Shown here piece after piece: positions 1,873-23,193 of a DNA stretch of 32,304 nucleotides. The number at the start of each line of letters is the position of its first letter. The first letter of the stretch is position 1. The stretch is from NCBI GenBank assembly GCA_015066575.1, contig SVOD01000008.1, forward strand, positions 1 to 32,304. Direction: 5' to 3'. The translations under genes and the position numbers were made by a program. This DNA comes from Oscillospiraceae bacterium (GTDB taxonomy: Bacteria; Bacillota; Clostridia; Oscillospirales; Acutalibacteraceae). The notes under the pieces were generated by a model. The model saw only the letters and a program-made list of their open reading frames with translations, did no database searches and was not told where the DNA came from.

Positions 1873-1878
1873 TGCACA

Positions 1879-1917
1879 ATTCGGAATTCGGAATGCGGAA
1901 TTCGGAATTCGGAATTA
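1879..1917 (+). repeat. Heptamer array (CGGAATT/CGGAATG)
   Basis: ttcggaattcggaatgcggaattcggaattcggaatt, period 7. Confidence 0.9.
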
Positions 1918-1952
1918 AAGGGCGGGACACCCGCACCCGATTATAATAGTTC

Positions 1953-2015
1953 GGTTTGCGGTAGCAAACAAAACGCAGAGAGTGAATTTAGCGTTTTCAT
2001 CTTAACCACTTCTCG
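1953..2015 (+). repeat. Module E, copy 1 (63 bp, upstream of dnaK)
   Basis: Colinear with 4095-4157, about 55/63 identical by hand count; contains hairpin GTTTGC-ggta-GCAAAC. Confidence 0.9.
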
Positions 2016-2017
2016 TC

Positions 2018-2058
2018 GCCCCTTTCAGGGGAGATGTCACGAAGTGACAGAGGGGTAG
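2018..2058. repeat. Double-hairpin module D, copy 1
   Basis: CCCCT-ttc-AGGGG then TGTCAC-gaa-GTGACA then gaGGGGTAG. Confidence 0.8.
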
Positions 2059-2156: not shown

Positions 2157-4001
2157 ATGGCAAAAATCATCGGTATCGACTTAGGTACAACCAATTCTTG
2201 TGTAGCAGTTATCGAGGGCGGCGAGCCCACGGTTATTGCAAATGCGGAAGGTGCAAGAACCACCCCTTCCGTAGTCGGATTTAAAAAGGACGGCGAGCGC
2301 CTTGTGGGCAACATCGCAAAGCGCCAGGCAGTCACCAATCCGGAAGGAACCGTTTCTTCTATCAAGAGACATATGGGTTCCGATTACAAAGTGAATATCG
2401 GCGGCAAATCCTATACGCCGCAAGAGATTTCGGCAATGATTTTGCAGAAATTAAAGGCAGATGCCGAGAGTTATCTCGGTGAGACAGTGACCGAAGCCGT
2501 TATCACGGTTCCCGCTTACTTCTCCGACTCTCAGCGCCAGGCAACCAAGGATGCCGGTAAAATTGCGGGCTTGGAAGTCAAGAGAATTATCAACGAGCCT
2601 ACCGCGGCGGCACTCGCCTACGGTATCGACAAAGAGCAGGACCAAAAGGTGATGGTTTACGACCTGGGCGGCGGCACCTTTGATGTTTCCATCATCGAAA
2701 TGGGTGACGGTGTGCAGGAAGTGCTTGCCACCAACGGTAACACCATGCTCGGCGGCGACGATTTTGATAACAAGATTATCGACTGGTTAGTTGCAGAGTT
2801 CAAAAAAGAGCAGGGCATTGACCTTTCCAACGACAGAATGGCAATGCAGCGCTTGAAGGACGCTGCGGAGAAGGCGAAGATTGACCTTTCCGGCACCACC
2901 ACCGCCAACATCAACCTGCCCTTTATTACCCAGGGTGAAGACGGTCCCAAGCACTTGGATTTAACCTTGAGCAGAGCGAAGTTTAACGAAATGACCGCAG
3001 ACCTTGTCGAAAAGACCATGGACCCGGTCAGAAAGGCGCTTGCAGACAGCGGCTTGAGTGTCGGCGAAATCGACAAAGTGCTCATGGTCGGCGGTTCTTC
3101 GAGAATCCCCGCCGTGCAGGAAGCGATTAAGAAATTCACCGGCAAAGAGCCCTTTAAGGGAATCAACCCCGATGAGTGCGTGGCAGTCGGTGCGGCGATT
3201 CAGGCAGGCGTTCTCAATAACGATGTGGAAGGTTTACTGCTTCTTGATGTTACCCCGCTTTCGCTCGGTATTGAAACGATGGGCGGCGTGAGCACCAAGA
3301 TTATTGAGAGAAACACCACCATCCCGACCAAGAAGAGCCAAATCTTCTCCACCGCGGCAGATAACCAAACGAGCGTAGAAGTGCATGTGCTGCAGGGCGA
3401 AAGAGAGTTTGCAAGAGACAATAAAACACTCGGTATGTTCCACCTTGACGGTATTCTTCCCGCGCGCCGCGGTGTGCCGCAGATTGAAGTAACCTTTGAT
3501 ATTGATGCCAACGGTATTGTGCATGTATCTGCCAAGGACCTCGGCACCGGCAAAGAGCAGCAAATCAGCATCACCGCCTCCACCAATATGAGCAAAGAAG
3601 ATATTGATAAGGCAGTGCGCGAGGCAGAGCAGTTTGCCGCTGAGGATAAGAAGAGAAAAGAAGATGTGGATACCCGCAATCAGGCAGACCAAATGGTCTA
3701 CGAGTGCGAGAAACTCTTAAGCGAGTCCGGCGACAAGTTTGATGCAGCCGACAAGTCCGACTTGGAGAGCAAGTTAAATGCCCTCAAAGAAGCGCTTAAG
3801 GGTGACGACAGCGCTGCGATTAAATCCGCGCAGGAAACCTTGACACAGAAGTTCTATGAGGTTTCTCAAAAACTCTATCAGGCAGCCAACCCGCAGGGCG
3901 CACAACCCGGTGCGCAGCCCGGCGCGGATGCCGGCGCACAGGCAGGCCCGAATGCGGACGGCACGTATGATGCGGATTTCCGCGATGTGACAGAAGAATA
4001 A
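2157..4001 (+). CDS. dnaK: Molecular chaperone DnaK (Hsp70)
   Basis: 614 aa; [40 protein letters not shown] motifs. Confidence 0.99.
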
Positions 4002-4020
4002 GCCGGAGGCTTATCTTTCC

Positions 4021-4046
4021 GAACGCGGAATGCGGAATGCGGAATT
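4021..4046 (+). repeat. Heptamer array (CGGAATG)
   Basis: gaacgcggaatgcggaatgcggaatt. Confidence 0.85.
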
Positions 4047-4094
4047 AGAGGGCGAGGCACTCGCGCTCGTTCCGCTTCGCTCTATTTCCGGTTG

Positions 4095-4157
4095 GGTTTG
4101 CGTCAGCAAACAAAACGCAGAAAGTAAATTAAGCGTTTCCATCTTAACCGCTTCTTG
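4095..4157 (+). repeat. Module E, copy 2 (downstream of dnaK)
   Basis: Colinear near-copy of 1953-2015. Confidence 0.9.
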
Positions 4158-4203
4158 CCCTCCCTTGTCAGGGAGGGGGGGACCGCTTGCGGTGGAAGGG
4201 TAG
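4157..4203. repeat. Double-hairpin module D, copy 2
   Basis: CCCTCCCT-tgtc-AGGGAGGG then ACCGC-tt-GCGGT then ggaaGGGTAG. Confidence 0.8.
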
Positions 4204-5599: not shown

Positions 5600-5636
5600 G
5601 ACAAATCAGGATTTGGCGATGCCAAATCCTGATTTG
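5600..5636. repeat. Family C palindrome, copy C3
   Basis: CAAATCAGGATTTGGC-gat-GCCAAATCCTGATTTG, 16-bp perfect stem. Confidence 0.85.
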
Positions 5637-5671
5637 AGTGTTCAGTGTTCAGTAGCAAGGCTACGCCTTGC
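5637..5671 (+). repeat. Heptamer array (AGTGTTC) plus covarying hairpin
   Basis: agtgttcagtgttcagta then GCAAGGC-tac-GCCTTGC. Confidence 0.75.
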
Positions 5672-5681
5672 TTTTTTTGAA

Positions 5682-5723
5682 ACCGCCCTATCAAGGGCGG
5701 TGCGTGCATAGCACGCGGTGGGT
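5682..5723. repeat. Double-hairpin module D, copy 3
   Basis: ACCGCCCT-atca-AGGGCGGT then GCGTGC-ata-GCACGC then ggtgggt. Confidence 0.75.
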
Positions 5724-5758
5724 GAAACTGAAAACTGAACCCTGAAAACTGAAAACTG
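5724..5758. repeat. Heptamer array (CTGAAAA type)
   Basis: gaaactgaaaactgaaccctgaaaactgaaaactga, period 7; inverted relative to 5637-5653. Confidence 0.85.
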
Positions 5759-5805
5759 ACAAATAAGGTTTGTCGAGCTGTCAGCTCGACAAATCCTTAT
5801 TTGTC
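5758..5805. repeat. Family C palindrome, copy C2
   Basis: GACAAATAAGGTTTGTCGAGCTG/TCAGCTCGACAAATCCTTATTTGTC. Confidence 0.9.
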
Positions 5806-8172: not shown

Positions 8173-9336
8173 ATGCAAAATTTTCAGTATTGTACCCCGA
8201 CAAAATTGATTTTCGGGAAAGGGGTTATCGACCAACTGCCCGCAGTCATGGAGCAGTTCGGCAAAAGGGTGCTGATGACCTACGGTTGCGGCAGTATTAA
8301 AAAGAGCGGGCTTTATGACAAAGTGAAGGCGCTGCTGCCACAAAAAGAAATATTTGATTTGGCTGGCATTGAGCCCAACCCCAAGTATAACCCGAGTGTG
8401 CTCGAGGGTGTTAAAATTTGTAAAGAGGAAGCGATAGATGTCATTCTCAGCGTGGGCGGCGGCAGTGTGCTCGACTGTTCAAAAGCCATCGCCGCCGGCG
8501 CAAAGTATGCCGGAGACCCCTGGGACCTCATCAGCTACAAGGTGAAGGCAAAGGATGCGCTCCCGATTGTCGACATTCTCACCCTTGCCGCCACGGGCAG
8601 CGAGTTTGACGCGGGCGGTGTGATTTCGCGCACCGAAACCAACGATAAAATCGGTTATATTGACCCGCTTCTTTACCCGCGCGTTTCCCTGTTGGACCCG
8701 ACCTATACCTTTACCGTTTCCAAAAAGCAGACGGCGGCAGGCTGTGCTGACGCCATGAACCACATTATCGAGCAGTATTTCTGCGCGGATTCCACATTGC
8801 TTAACGACGGCTTTATGGAGGCGGCGCTGAAAAGCTTGATGATTCAAACAAGAAAGTGCCTCGAAAACCCGGAGGACTATACTGCCAGAGCCGAAATGAT
8901 GCTTTGCTGCACCTATGGCTGCAACCGCATTTATTCGCTCGGTAACAGCCAGTCCGGCTGGCCGTGCCACGGGATTGAGCACGCCTTGAGCGCGTATTAT
9001 GACATTACACACGGCGAGGGGCTTGCCATTATCACCCCGCGCTGGATGGAACACATTTTAAATGAAAATTCGGTGGCGCGCTTTGTTAAATACGGTGTCA
9101 ATGTTTTCGGCATTGATGAGAATCAGGAAAAGTTTGCGATTGCTCATCAGGCGATTGAAGCCACTTACAAATTCTTCGAGTCCATCGGCATTCCGATGCA
9201 CTTGCGCGAAGTGGGGATTGATGAGAGCCGTATCGGCGAAATGGCGCACCATATCGCGGTCAATGAAGGGCTCGAAAACGCCTGGGTACCGCTAAGCGAA
9301 GAAGATTTAACAGAAATTTTGACCGCTTCACTCTAA
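8173..9336 (+). CDS. Iron-containing (NADPH-dependent butanol-type) alcohol dehydrogenase
   Basis: 387 aa; FGKGVIDQLPAVMEQFGKRVLMTYGCGSIKKSG, SVGGGSVLDCSKAIA, WPCHGIEHALSAYYDITHGEGLAIITP motifs. Confidence 0.93.
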   Translation: MQNFQYCTPTKLIFGKGVIDQLPAVMEQFGKRVLMTYGCGSIKKSGLYDKVKALLPQKEIFDLAGIEPNPKYNPSVLEGVKICKEEAIDVILSVGGGSVLDCSKAIAAGAKYAGDPWDLISYKVKAKDALPIVDILTLAATGSEFDAGGVISRTETNDKIGYIDPLLYPRVSLLDPTYTFTVSKKQTAAGCADAMNHIIEQYFCADSTLLNDGFMEAALKSLMIQTRKCLENPEDYTARAEMMLCCTYGCNRIYSLGNSQSGWPCHGIEHALSAYYDITHGEGLAIITPRWMEHILNENSVARFVKYGVNVFGIDENQEKFAIAHQAIEATYKFFESIGIPMHLREVGIDESRIGEMAHHIAVNEGLENAWVPLSEEDLTEILTASL

Positions 9337-10625: not shown

Positions 10626-11360
10626 TTATATTGTGGGTATGTGCGGGTCAAATGCCGGCATTAACTGCAATTTAAACAGATTCAGGCGATGGCGGCGGTC
10701 AATATTGGCTTTCTTTTCGCTGTCGGCAATGCTGCCTGTGCGAATGTAGGTATCCAACTCGGCATAGGTAAAGCCGAGGTTGTCCTCATCGGTCTTGCCG
10801 CTCAAGCCGTCAATCGGCGGCTTTTCAATAAGCACCTCTGGTAAGCCCAATTCTCTGCCGATGGCTTTCATCTCCTGCACGGTCAGGTTTGAACAGGGGC
10901 TGAAGTCGCCCGCGGCATCACCGTAGCGCGTGGAGTAGCCCACCCAGTCCTCGGAAAGGTTGCAGGTGTTTGCCACCCTGCCGTTGTGGCTTTGTGCGAC
11001 CGCATAGAGCGTGCTCATGCGCAGGCGCGGCGGCAGGTTGATAATGCTTTGCTCGGAGAGCGTAAAGGGCATACTCTCTTTGAGCGACTCAAATGCGGCG
11101 CCGATATTGACCGTGTAGTGGCGAATACCCAAGTGCTCAACAAGCAACTGCGCCATATCGATATCGCTCTGCGCGCCGTTGGGCATCAGCACCCCGATAA
11201 CGCGCTCTTTCCCCAGCGCCTCGGCGCACAGCGCCGCGACAATCGAACTGTCCTTGCCGCCGGAGATACCGACAATCGCATTGCAGCCTTTTCCGTTTTC
11301 TTCAAAGAAGGCGCGAATCCACGCCACACAATCGTCTTTTATGCGTTTGGCATCAAACAT
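10626..11360 (-). CDS. nadE: NH3-dependent NAD+ synthetase
   Basis: 244 aa; VGISGGKDSSIVAALCAEALG P-loop, NTCNLSEDWVGYSTRYGDAAGDFSP; no glutaminase domain. Confidence 0.96.
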   Translation of the reverse strand: MFDAKRIKDDCVAWIRAFFEENGKGCNAIVGISGGKDSSIVAALCAEALGKERVIGVLMPNGAQSDIDMAQLLVEHLGIRHYTVNIGAAFESLKESMPFTLSEQSIINLPPRLRMSTLYAVAQSHNGRVANTCNLSEDWVGYSTRYGDAAGDFSPCSNLTVQEMKAIGRELGLPEVLIEKPPIDGLSGKTDEDNLGFTYAELDTYIRTGSIADSEKKANIDRRHRLNLFKLQLMPAFDPHIPTI

Positions 11361-11434: not shown

Positions 11435-11484
11435 GACAAATAAGGATTTGCGGAGCCCCTTGCGGGCTCCCAAATCCTTATTTG
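11435..11484. repeat. Family C palindrome, copy C4
   Basis: GACAAATAAGGATTTG c GGAGCCC-cttgc-GGGCTCC CAAATCCTTATTTG. Confidence 0.9.
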
Positions 11485-11541
11485 AATTCGGAATTCGGAA
11501 TGCGGAATTAGTGGTGGCAAGGCTACGCCTTGCATTTTAAA
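11484..11541 (+). repeat. Heptamer array plus covarying hairpin module
   Basis: gaattcggaattcggaatgcggaattagtggtg GCAAGGC-tac-GCCTTGC attttaaag. Confidence 0.85.
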
Positions 11542-11621
11542 GATTTCTCGCAATCTCGAAATAATAAATCATTAGCTGTTACAAGGTTTTTTTACTTGTG
11601 AGTAAAGACTACATTTTCACA

Positions 11622-11692
11622 ATAGAGCGAAGCGGAACAAGTGCGAATGTGTCGCCCTTTAATTCCGAATTCCGAACTCCGAATTCCGCATT
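11622..11692 (-). repeat. Heptamer array plus module F, inverted orientation
   Basis: Reverse complement reads tgcggaattcggagttcggaattcggaattaaagggcgacacattcgcacttgttccgcttcgctctat; 39-bp module F matches 17260-17299 with one mismatch by eye. Confidence 0.9.
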
Positions 11693-11703
11693 GCTGTTCA
11701 TAG

Positions 11704-11731
11704 AACAGCTCGACAAATCCTTATTTGTCGA
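11704..11731. repeat. Family C half copy, C5
   Basis: gaacagctcgacaaatccttatttgtcg matches the right half of C1. Confidence 0.8.
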
Positions 11732-11734
11732 ACA

Positions 11735-11780: not shown

Positions 11781-12023
11781 TTATTCAGCTTTTTCTTCTT
11801 CTGCAACTTCTTCAGCTGCTTCTTCAGCCGGTTCTTCAGCTGCTTCGTTGAGTTCACAACCTTCGCAGTCTTCGCATTCGCACTCGAAGCAATCGAATTC
11901 ATCCCAATCTTCGTCATCGTCATCACCGACGAACTTGTTGATGATGAAATATGCGCCTGCAGCGATAGCGGCTACGATAATGATAGCACCAACTACTTTA
12001 AGAATCACTTTTAAAAGACCCAT
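11781..12023 (-). CDS. 80-aa membrane microprotein with acidic Cys-rich motif
   Basis: N-terminal TM, GDDDDEDWDEFDCFECECEDCEGCE, Glu/Ala tail; SD GGAGG; promoter TTGACA-N17-TATAAT. Confidence 0.85.
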   Translation of the reverse strand: MGLLKVILKVVGAIIIVAAIAAGAYFIINKFVGDDDDEDWDEFDCFECECEDCEGCELNEAAEEPAEEAAEEVAEEEKAE

Positions 12024-13945: not shown

Positions 13946-13948
13946 AAT

Positions 13949-14004
13949 GCAGAATTCGGAATGCGGAATTCGGAATTAAATGGCGACACATTCGCGCTTG
14001 TTAA
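13949..14004 (+). repeat. Heptamer array plus partial module F
   Basis: gcagaattcggaatgcggaattcggaattaaatggcgacacattcgcgcttgtt. Confidence 0.85.
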
Positions 14005-17227: not shown

Positions 17228-17299
17228 AATGCGGAATGCGGAATGCGGAATTCGGAATTAAAGGGCGACACATTCGCACTTGTTCCGCTGCGCTCTATG
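17228..17299 (+). repeat. Heptamer array plus module F
   Basis: aatgcggaatgcggaatgcggaattcggaattaaagggcgacacattcgcacttgttccgctgcgctctat. Confidence 0.9.
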
Positions 17300-17329
17300 T
17301 TATTGTTGCGAGTTCATAAAAACGAACTT

Positions 17330-17401
17330 GTGTTAAAATGCAACGCTTTGCGTTGCCACTACTCGCCAATAGGCTAATAGGCTAATTTGCTAATAGGCTA
17401 T
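17330..17401 (-). repeat. Octamer array plus covarying hairpin module, inverted
   Basis: Reverse strand: TAGCCTAT/TAGCAAAT array, then agtagtg GCAACGC-aaa-GCGTTGC attttaaca. Confidence 0.85.
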
Positions 17402-19190: not shown

Positions 19191-20555
19191 ATGGCATTTG
19201 AAGGTTTAAGTGAAAAACTATCGGCTGCTTTTAAGCGCTTGCGCTCAAAGGGTAAGTTGACCGAAGCCGATGTGAAAGCCGCCATGAGAGAAGTTCGCCT
19301 GGCGCTGCTGGAAGCGGATGTTAACTATAAAGTAGCAAAAGATTTTACCAATAAAGTCACCGAGAGAGCCATCGGGCAGGATGTGATGGAAAGCCTGACG
19401 CCGGCGCAAATGGTTATCAAAATTGTCGATGAGGAGCTGTGCGAGCTGATGGGCGGCACCGAAACCCGCCTGGCAACCTCCTCGCGCCTGCCGACCATCG
19501 TGATGATGTGCGGCTTGCAGGGCTCCGGTAAAACCACCCACTCCGGCAAGCTGGCGCTCATGCTCAAAAATCAGGGGCACCGCCCGCTGCTGGTCGCTTG
19601 TGACGTATACCGACCGGCTGCGATTAAGCAGCTGCAGGTTGTGGGCGAAAAAATCGGCGTTCCCGTTTTTGAAAAAGGGCAGTCAGACCCGGTGCAAATT
19701 GCCCTGGAGGCAGTCAAATACGCAAGGGACTACGGCTACGACTATATGTTTTTAGATACCGCAGGTCGCTTGCATATTGATGAAGTGCTCATGGATGAGC
19801 TGCGCAACATTAAAGCGCAGGTGCATCCGCACGAAATTTTGCTTGTCGTCGATGCCATGACCGGTCAGGATGCGGTCAATGTGGCAGCGGCATTTGATGA
19901 AGCCCTGGGGATAGACGGTTTGGTGATTACCAAGCTCGACGGTGACACCAGAGGCGGTGCGGCACTTTCCGCAAAGGCGGTAACCGGCAAGCCAATCAAA
20001 TTTGCAGGTATCGGCGAGAAACTCGAGGATTTGGAAGTATTCCACCCCGACAGAATGGCAAAGCGCATTCTCGGCATGGGCGATGTACTCACCCTTATTG
20101 AGAAAGCCGAACAGCAGATTGATGAAAAATCGGCGGCAAAATTAGAGCAAAAGCTCAGAAAAAATAAATTTGATTTAGATGATTTGCTTGAGCAATTGGA
20201 GCAAATCCGCAATATGGGTTCGATTAAGGACCTGCTGGGCATGATTCCCGGGATGAGCAAGAAAATCGGCGATGCGGATATCGACGAGCGCCAGTTCGAC
20301 CGCTTACAGGCAATCATTCGCTCGATGACGGCGAAGGAGCGCAAGAATCCCGATATTATCAACCCGTCTCGCAAGCGTAGAATTGCTGCGGGTAGCGGTA
20401 CGCAGGTGGAAGATGTCAACCGTGTGCTCAAGCAGCATCGCGATATGCAAAAGATGTTTAAGCAGATGAACTCCAAGTCCATGAAGCGCAAAATGTCCCG
20501 CATGGGCGGCATGGGCGGTATGGGCCCCGGCGGTATGAGCGGATTTGGGTTTTAA
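19191..20555 (+). CDS. ffh: Signal recognition particle protein Ffh (SRP54)
   Basis: GLQGSGKTTHSGKLA, DTAGRLHID, TKLDGDTRGGAALS; Met-rich C-terminus. Confidence 0.98.
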   Translation: MAFEGLSEKLSAAFKRLRSKGKLTEADVKAAMREVRLALLEADVNYKVAKDFTNKVTERAIGQDVMESLTPAQMVIKIVDEELCELMGGTETRLATSSRLPTIVMMCGLQGSGKTTHSGKLALMLKNQGHRPLLVACDVYRPAAIKQLQVVGEKIGVPVFEKGQSDPVQIALEAVKYARDYGYDYMFLDTAGRLHIDEVLMDELRNIKAQVHPHEILLVVDAMTGQDAVNVAAAFDEALGIDGLVITKLDGDTRGGAALSAKAVTGKPIKFAGIGEKLEDLEVFHPDRMAKRILGMGDVLTLIEKAEQQIDEKSAAKLEQKLRKNKFDLDDLLEQLEQIRNMGSIKDLLGMIPGMSKKIGDADIDERQFDRLQAIIRSMTAKERKNPDIINPSRKRRIAAGSGTQVEDVNRVLKQHRDMQKMFKQMNSKSMKRKMSRMGGMGGMGPGGMSGFGF

Positions 20556-20608
20556 TTCGGAATGCGGAGTTCGGAATGCGGAATGAGCGGTGGTGCCGCT
20601 TGCGGCAC
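20555..20608 (+). repeat. Heptamer array plus covarying hairpin
   Basis: attcggaatgcggagttcggaatgcggaatgagcggtg GTGCCGC-tt-GCGGCAC. Confidence 0.85.
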
Positions 20609-20664
20609 ATTAGAATGCGAAACGCAGTTTCGCCACCACAACTCCACACTCCACACTCCACACT
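20609..20664 (-). repeat. Second heptamer array (GTGGAGT) plus covarying hairpin, inverted
   Basis: Reverse strand: gtgtggagtgtggagtgtggagttgtggtg GCGAAAC-tgc-GTTTCGC attcta. Confidence 0.8.
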
Positions 20665-23117: not shown

Positions 23118-23128
23118 ATGACAATTAC

Positions 23129-23193
23129 AATGCGGAATGCGGAATTCGGAATGCGGAATTAAAGGTGGCGAAGCTATGCTTCGCATTTTAAAA
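23129..23193 (+). repeat. Heptamer array plus covarying hairpin
   Basis: caatgcggaatgcggaattcggaatgcggaattaaaggtg GCGAAGC-tat-GCTTCGC attttaaaa. Confidence 0.88.

What the first reader, a model, noticed from the sequence alone, without database searches (positions are those of the whole stretch)
11435..11732. Modular array-bounded inverted element (about 300 bp): C palindrome / heptamer array + / hairpin + / spacer / module F - / heptamer array - / C half-palindrome
Nested symmetry in a non-coding gap. The outer C-family sequences (CAAATCCTTATTTG) sit outside two inverted CGGAATT-type arrays (11484-11510 and 11660-11692), which enclose a stem-loop with GTGG...ATTTTAA flanks and, on the other side, a 39-bp module (F). 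The same module set recurs at 17228-17401 in opposite orientation with a different terminal array. This looks like a MITE/BOX-like modular element whose ends are short tandem arrays rather than conventional terminal inverted repeats. I do not recognise a named family, although heptamer STRRs (cyanobacteria) and BOX elements are partial analogues.
Basis: partly seen in the sequence, partly recalled or inferred. Interest (0 to 1): 0.85.

Follow-up and report, generated by a model that had tools for sequence, protein, structure and literature searches.

The report
Palindrome-bounded hairpin cassettes with heptamer arrays
This is one of many copies of a small non-coding, mobile-looking element built from hairpins and 7-base repeats; related species carry the same palindrome-marked spots but with different elements inside them, which suggests that short DNA cassettes are swapped at fixed places and pass between species.

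Summary
Window 11435-11732 is one of seven near full-length, 93-100% identical dispersed copies: palindrome C, inward 7-mer array, GTGG hairpin, core, F hairpin, inverted 7-mer array, C half. C half-sites number 216 in this genome (control 0) and were seen only in this genus. Period-7 arrays are a real class: 36, against 0-2 for any other period. They sit directly 5' of REP-like GTGG hairpins whose stems covary.

The strongest result is comparative. At 10 of 14 sites a related species has C at the same boundary (0-3 nt), but in 8 of 9 readable sites the contents differ. Cassette cores are up to 99.3% identical between species whose genomes are about 74% identical.

Best reading: non-autonomous REP/BIME-like foldback cassettes in palindrome-bounded intergenic slots, turning over faster than the slots and moving between species. 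No mobilising enzyme and no target-site duplication were found; RAYT linkage was tested and not met. All genomes compared are fragmented assemblies.

The parts
11437..11484 (.). left terminal C palindrome (CAAATAAGGATTTG ... CAAATCCTTATTTG)
   Evidence: copies diverge just outside it
11485..11510 (+). left heptamer array (AATTCGG/AATGCGG), pointing inward
11511..11540 (+). REP-like unit: GTGG(TGG) tag, 7-bp hairpin GCAAGGC-TAC-GCCTTGC, ATTTTAA tail
   Evidence: covariation
11541..11621 (.). core spacer of the E1 cassette family
   Evidence: 97.8% identical core in relative G006
11622..11660 (-). module F, second hairpin unit in inverted orientation
11661..11692 (-). right heptamer array (AATTCCG), inverted; pairs with the left array
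11693..11730 (.). right terminal hairpin and C half-palindrome
5602..5803 (.). second complete C-to-C element in the window, cassette family E2 (AGTGTTC / AAACTGA arrays)
17228..17401 (-). related unit without C: octamer array, GTGG hairpin, spacer, F, heptamer array
20554..20664 (.). inverted pair of GTGG hairpins, each with its own array (AATNCGG left, ACTCCAC right)
1875..1940 (+). heptamer array plus F module, lone end
4019..4086 (+). heptamer array plus F module, lone end
13946..14002 (+). heptamer array plus F module, lone end
23128..23193 (+). heptamer array plus GTGG hairpin, lone end

Best explanation
It is a non-autonomous, mobile foldback cassette bounded by palindromes. Shown: many near-identical dispersed copies; a fixed order; covarying GTGG hairpins preceded by inward 7-mer arrays; arrays that can pair into a long stem; copies that end at C palindromes; mainly intergenic placement, often beside terminators; the same C boundary in other species with different contents; cassettes more alike between species than their genomes. 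Inferred: an unidentified enzyme supplied in trans reads the folded palindromes and hairpins and copies or exchanges the cassette at C, so that a C palindrome acts as a reusable slot. Also inferred: the arrays grow and change by strand slippage beside the hairpins, and modules recombine at shared hairpin sequences.
For: Seven near full-length copies. 216 C half-sites, control 0. Covariation: 98.5% paired, 41 cells changed on both sides, 0 of 500 shuffles as high. 81 of 169 GTGG hairpins have 7-periodic DNA upstream, against 3 of 67 for the control tag GAAG. Array regions within an element match each other, p = 0.008; RNA fold z = -9.8. 10 of 22 elements touch a terminator-like hairpin against 4.6% of random positions. 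Same C boundary in relatives at 10 of 14 sites, other contents in 8 of 9 readable. Single palindrome at two occupied sites in G002. E4 core 99.3% identical between G000 and G004 against about 74% for long alignable stretches.
Against: No mobilising gene was found: no C-ended copy with a gene was seen in the listed places, Y1 transposase genes are not flanked by these units, and IS110 is absent from three of the four C-bearing genomes. No excision or insertion event was observed. Only about 14 sites were compared, in fragmented assemblies. At s2 in G006 the cassette is of the same class, and at s6 it is a relative in opposite orientation.
Confidence: 0.6

Rival explanations
1. Repeated independent insertion: C-ended MITEs are inserted by a conventional transposase that strongly prefers certain bases beside terminators, so different species acquired different elements at the same site.
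For: Terminator preference; C-ended copies behave like TIR elements.
Against: Flanks of different sites share almost nothing except occasional CGA next to C, and there is no target-site duplication. Outer bases TCGAGTTGCC are shared by G000 and G002 at s4 while G002 has only one palindrome there, which points to an inherited boundary.
Confidence: 0.2
2. Slot contents change by ordinary homologous recombination or gene conversion between dispersed C copies and between species, with no dedicated enzyme.
For: C copies are numerous and similar; mosaics exist, such as the E2 core with an E1 array.
Against: Homology at C is at most about 48 bp and only about 14 bp per conserved arm; exchange to unrelated palindromes at s3 and s14 in G006 leaves no shared homology at the inner side.
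Confidence: 0.25
3. The elements are mainly functional 3' end structures (terminators or mRNA stabilisers) kept by the host, and their spread is secondary.
For: Excess in convergent gaps, 12 of 36 against 11 of 143; strong RNA fold; contact with terminators.
Against: A terminator is usually already present beside the element; contents at orthologous sites differ; three same-genus genomes lack exact C.
Confidence: 0.12
4. Part of the apparent cassette swapping is assembly error at repeats.
For: Many contigs start or stop near C; at s12 in G006 the two flanks show different cassette types.
Against: Separate contigs agree on cassette type from both flanks at s2, s6 and s8 in G006; s3, s4 and s14 lie inside contigs of 24-54 kb; C is about 48 bp, so one read can span it.
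Confidence: 0.1

Closest known systems
GTAG-tagged REPs, BIMEs and REPINs mobilised by RAYT transposases (PMC3733652, PMC2817692, PMC3116915)
   Same: Short hairpins with a 4-nt tag (GTGG variants are on record), stems of 6-9 bp with compensatory changes, inverted dimers, intergenic and often convergent placement, high copy number.
   Different: Each unit here carries a 7-mer tandem array on its tag side, elements are bounded by a second palindrome family (C), contents are exchanged at fixed boundaries, and no linked RAYT was found.
REP dimers inside longer palindromes in Anabaena variabilis and Halothiobacillus neapolitanus (PMC3733652, section 7)
   Same: REP units sit inside a larger conserved palindrome; the closest published precedent for C that I found.
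   Different: There the dimer splits one palindrome and no palindrome without a REP was found; here each side has its own palindrome (full or half), single palindromes occur at orthologous sites, and arrays intervene.
BOX elements of Streptococcus pneumoniae (PMC3049150)
   Same: Modular, non-coding, dispersed, foldable elements without an identified own enzyme.
   Different: The modules here are heptamer arrays, tagged hairpins and terminal palindromes; no BOX module sequence was recognised.
Heptamer repeats of cyanobacteria and Beggiatoaceae (TAACTGA; PMC4679880) and Mrazek's long simple repeats as cited there
   Same: Seven-base intergenic arrays with an ART/AYT-type core; seven is the dominant period.
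   Different: Here several array sequences occur per genome, oriented towards covarying hairpins; in 300 kb of Nostoc plasmid DNA the arrays had no such hairpins.
Integron attC sites and cassettes (from general knowledge, not compared here)
   Same: Palindromic boundary with variable inner stem and exchange of contents.
   Different: Cassettes carry no genes, slots are dispersed, and no integron integrase was identified.

Membership tests
REP / REPIN mobilised by RAYT | small palindrome with a GTAG-type tag at one end | tested here: met
   GTGG tag, 7-bp stem, covarying; GTGG is a recorded variant
REP / REPIN mobilised by RAYT | units arranged as inverted doublets | tested here: met
   of 8 close pairs of GTRG hairpins, 5 are inverted with tags outside and 3 head-to-tail; in E1 the partner is F, not a GTGG unit
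REP / REPIN mobilised by RAYT | RAYT gene flanked by two inverted copies of the repeat | tested here: not met
   long Y1 genes in G001, G003, G004, G006 have GGGGACGG-type ends and no GTGG unit within the 700 bp read on either side; G000 has only IS200-like Y1 genes; G000 is 82.7% complete
Classical MITE (TIR plus TSD) | terminal inverted repeats shared by copies | tested here: met
   C arms at both ends of the copies
Classical MITE (TIR plus TSD) | target-site duplication | tested here: not met
   22 elements, no excess for any length 2-10 and offset 0-5
Classical MITE (TIR plus TSD) | autonomous relative with the same ends | tested here: inconclusive
   none seen among listed C pairs, but the lists were cut and contigs break in these repeats
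BOX element | boxA, boxB, boxC sequence modules | not tested
   no BOX sequence was aligned; the resemblance is in architecture only
Known structured RNA family | match to an Rfam model | tested here: not met
   no match at gathering threshold in the window

The most novel reading that the evidence does not exclude
Fixed, palindrome-marked intergenic slots are inherited across species while gene-free cassettes (array, hairpin, core, hairpin, array) are exchanged in and out of them and pass between species, by an unknown recombinase that reads folded palindromes: an attachment-site and cassette system without genes.
Probability: 0.35. Interest if true: 0.8.

Novelty: new variant of a known kind. 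Interest (0 to 1): 0.62.

Why it matters
Heptamer arrays have been noted in distant bacteria, and why seven is favoured is still open. Here they are tied by position and direction to REP-like hairpins, in elements that can be compared site by site between species, so their origin becomes testable. If slot exchange holds in isolates, it is a gene-free exchange of DNA cassettes within and between species, placed next to many terminators, where it could alter the 3' ends of transcripts.

Tried and rejected
(1) RAYT genes as linked mobilisers: the long Y1 genes of relatives carry GGGGACGG ends, not these hairpins. (2) IS200-like Y1 genes in G000 and G004: their end hairpins are not GTGG units. (3) IS110 (PF01548): absent from G000, G002 and G006, which have C. 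(4) Tyrosine recombinases (PF00589): in all seven genomes, so not informative. (5) Target-site duplications: none. (6) Full C palindromes in viral contigs: none. (7) Rfam: no match in the window. (8) An autonomous C-ended copy with a gene: none among the listed C pairs, but those lists were cut. (9) The empty site at nadE itself: only G005 has both flanks on one contig, and its gap holds another array-hairpin unit.

Full report
WHAT IS THERE. The window is one contig (C54) of a 2.2 Mb genome in 181 contigs, 82.7% complete. Named matches to the array-hairpin pattern are Clostridia and Ruminococcaceae metagenome assemblies, several from goat and sheep small intestine. The element lies between nadE (10626-11360, minus strand) and a terminator-like repeat beside a small minus-strand open frame at 11781-12023. 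The best copies in the genome match 285-298 bp at 93-100% identity. Aligned copies lose similarity just outside the C sequences on both sides, so the unit that was dispersed runs from C to C.

C PALINDROMES. C has conserved 14-nt arms (CAAATAAGGATTTG ... CAAATCCTTATTTG) around inner stems that differ between copies but remain complementary. The genome has 216 half-sites with at most one mismatch and none of the reversed control. Exact half-sites number 63 in G002, 103 in G004 and 147 in G006, and 0 in G001, G003 and G005. Full palindromes number 58 in G000 and 35 in G006, and 0 in the other 149 family genomes searched, which came from other genera. Most C half-sites lie outside open frames (75 of 82), with an excess in convergent gaps: 12 of 36 against 11 of 143, p = 0.0002. 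Of 22 complete elements 10 touch a terminator-like hairpin, against 4.6% of random genome positions. There is no target-site duplication.

ARRAYS AND HAIRPINS. In 324 kb of own sequence period-7 arrays number 36 and no other period from 4 to 15 exceeds 2. Their sequences differ widely (AATTCGG, AGTGTTC, AGTGAAT, AGTGTGG, GTAGAAT, TTTGAAT and others), usually with ART as a shared core (my reading). A hairpin lies within 38 nt on the inner side of 33 of 52 orientable arrays and on the outer side of 31 of 52, against 15% at random array-free intergenic positions. Of 169 hairpins tagged GTGG, 81 have 7-periodic DNA directly upstream and at most 2 have any other period there; for the control tag GAAG it is 3 of 67 (p = 1e-11; the counts include near-identical copies). 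Units chosen without asking for pairing (GTGG, 16 bases, ATT, with an array upstream) nearly all fold: on 29 distinct units 98.5% of cells pair, 41 cells change on both sides, and 0 of 500 shuffles reach this.

WHOLE-ELEMENT FOLD. As RNA the element has z = -9.8: a C hairpin, a long stem of the two arrays enclosing the inner hairpins, and two 3' hairpins. As DNA the array part has z = -4.8. Across 19 non-redundant elements the two array regions match each other better than those of other elements, p = 0.008. Exceptions (L063 14917, L065 8297, L016 1419, L078 4434) are mosaics, for example the E2 core joined to an E1 array and tag.

SLOTS AND CASSETTES. Several cassette families share the C-to-C architecture. 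I joined the flanks of 14 elements and searched six relatives. At s4, G002 has a single palindrome with the same outer bases and G006 has none; at s14, G002 has a single palindrome, while G006 has the full architecture made of other palindromes and other heptamers; at s3, G006 and G002 also have palindrome, array, hairpin, array, palindrome with mostly unrelated sequences. At 10 of 14 sites a relative has a C half-site within 0-3 nt of the homologous boundary. In 8 of the 9 readable sites the inside is not the cassette of this genome in the same orientation; s6 is a same-family relative inverted, and s2 is the same class in G006 but different in G004. Site s13 in G002 holds an E2 cassette that aligns best to site s8 of this genome. 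The E4 core is 99.3% identical over 151 bp between G000 and G004, whose long alignable stretches average 74%; the E1 core is 97.8% identical over 134 bp to G006 against 85.6%. Recent movement between species is the simplest reading.

MECHANISM. The data fit a non-autonomous foldback element whose outer palindromes mark a reusable position. I infer an enzyme acting in trans on folded strands, because structure rather than sequence is kept in the inner C stems and the GTGG hairpins. I infer slippage beside hairpins as the source of the arrays; the preference for seven is unexplained here (a polymerase-footprint idea of Mrazek 2007 is cited in PMC4679880). No candidate enzyme was found.

COMPARISON. 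Tagged REPs (PMC3733652) and REPINs (PMC3116915) are the nearest kind for the hairpin units. REP dimers inside longer palindromes are on record (PMC3733652), the closest precedent for C. Attached 7-mer arrays and slot behaviour were not found in the papers read. RAYT linkage was tested and not met. Nostoc plasmids show period-7 arrays without such hairpins, so arrays are not bound to this element everywhere.

LIMITS. Only fragmented assemblies were available and contigs often stop in these repeats. Gene placement used simple open frames. The stretches read were partly chosen because they hold matches. Site counts are small. The paper library is open-access only.

Noticed in passing
L091-L096 (G001, G003, G004, G006): Long Y1 transposase genes of about 253-274 aa flanked by GGGGACGGTTC-type repeats, resembling the TIRYT genes with GGGGWSAS ends of PMC3733652.
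   Followed up: partly
L084 (G004:C160): The right end of an IS200-like element directly abuts an AGTGTTC-type heptamer array.
   Followed up: no
window 1949-2033 and 4091-4175: An 85-bp repeat (81% identical) lies on both sides of dnaK (2157-4001), next to array-F units.
   Followed up: no
L065 about 8366-8450; L068 about 19480-19560; L004 and L009 right ends: A further module (AGCCGAGCAA ... CGCCAAGGTTC) appears to interrupt an array or a C half-site, giving within-genome empty sites for that module.
   Followed up: no
L195-L200 (Nostoc plasmids): Eight period-7 arrays in 300 kb, against 0-1 for other periods, without GTGG hairpins beside them.
   Followed up: partly
L099 8262-8482 (G002:C78): Two E1-like units in tandem, about 190 bp apart, with an array at the junction.
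   Followed up: no
G000 contig ends, e.g. C54, C171, C40, C63: Many contigs begin or end within C or an array, so these repeats limit the assembly.
   Followed up: partly
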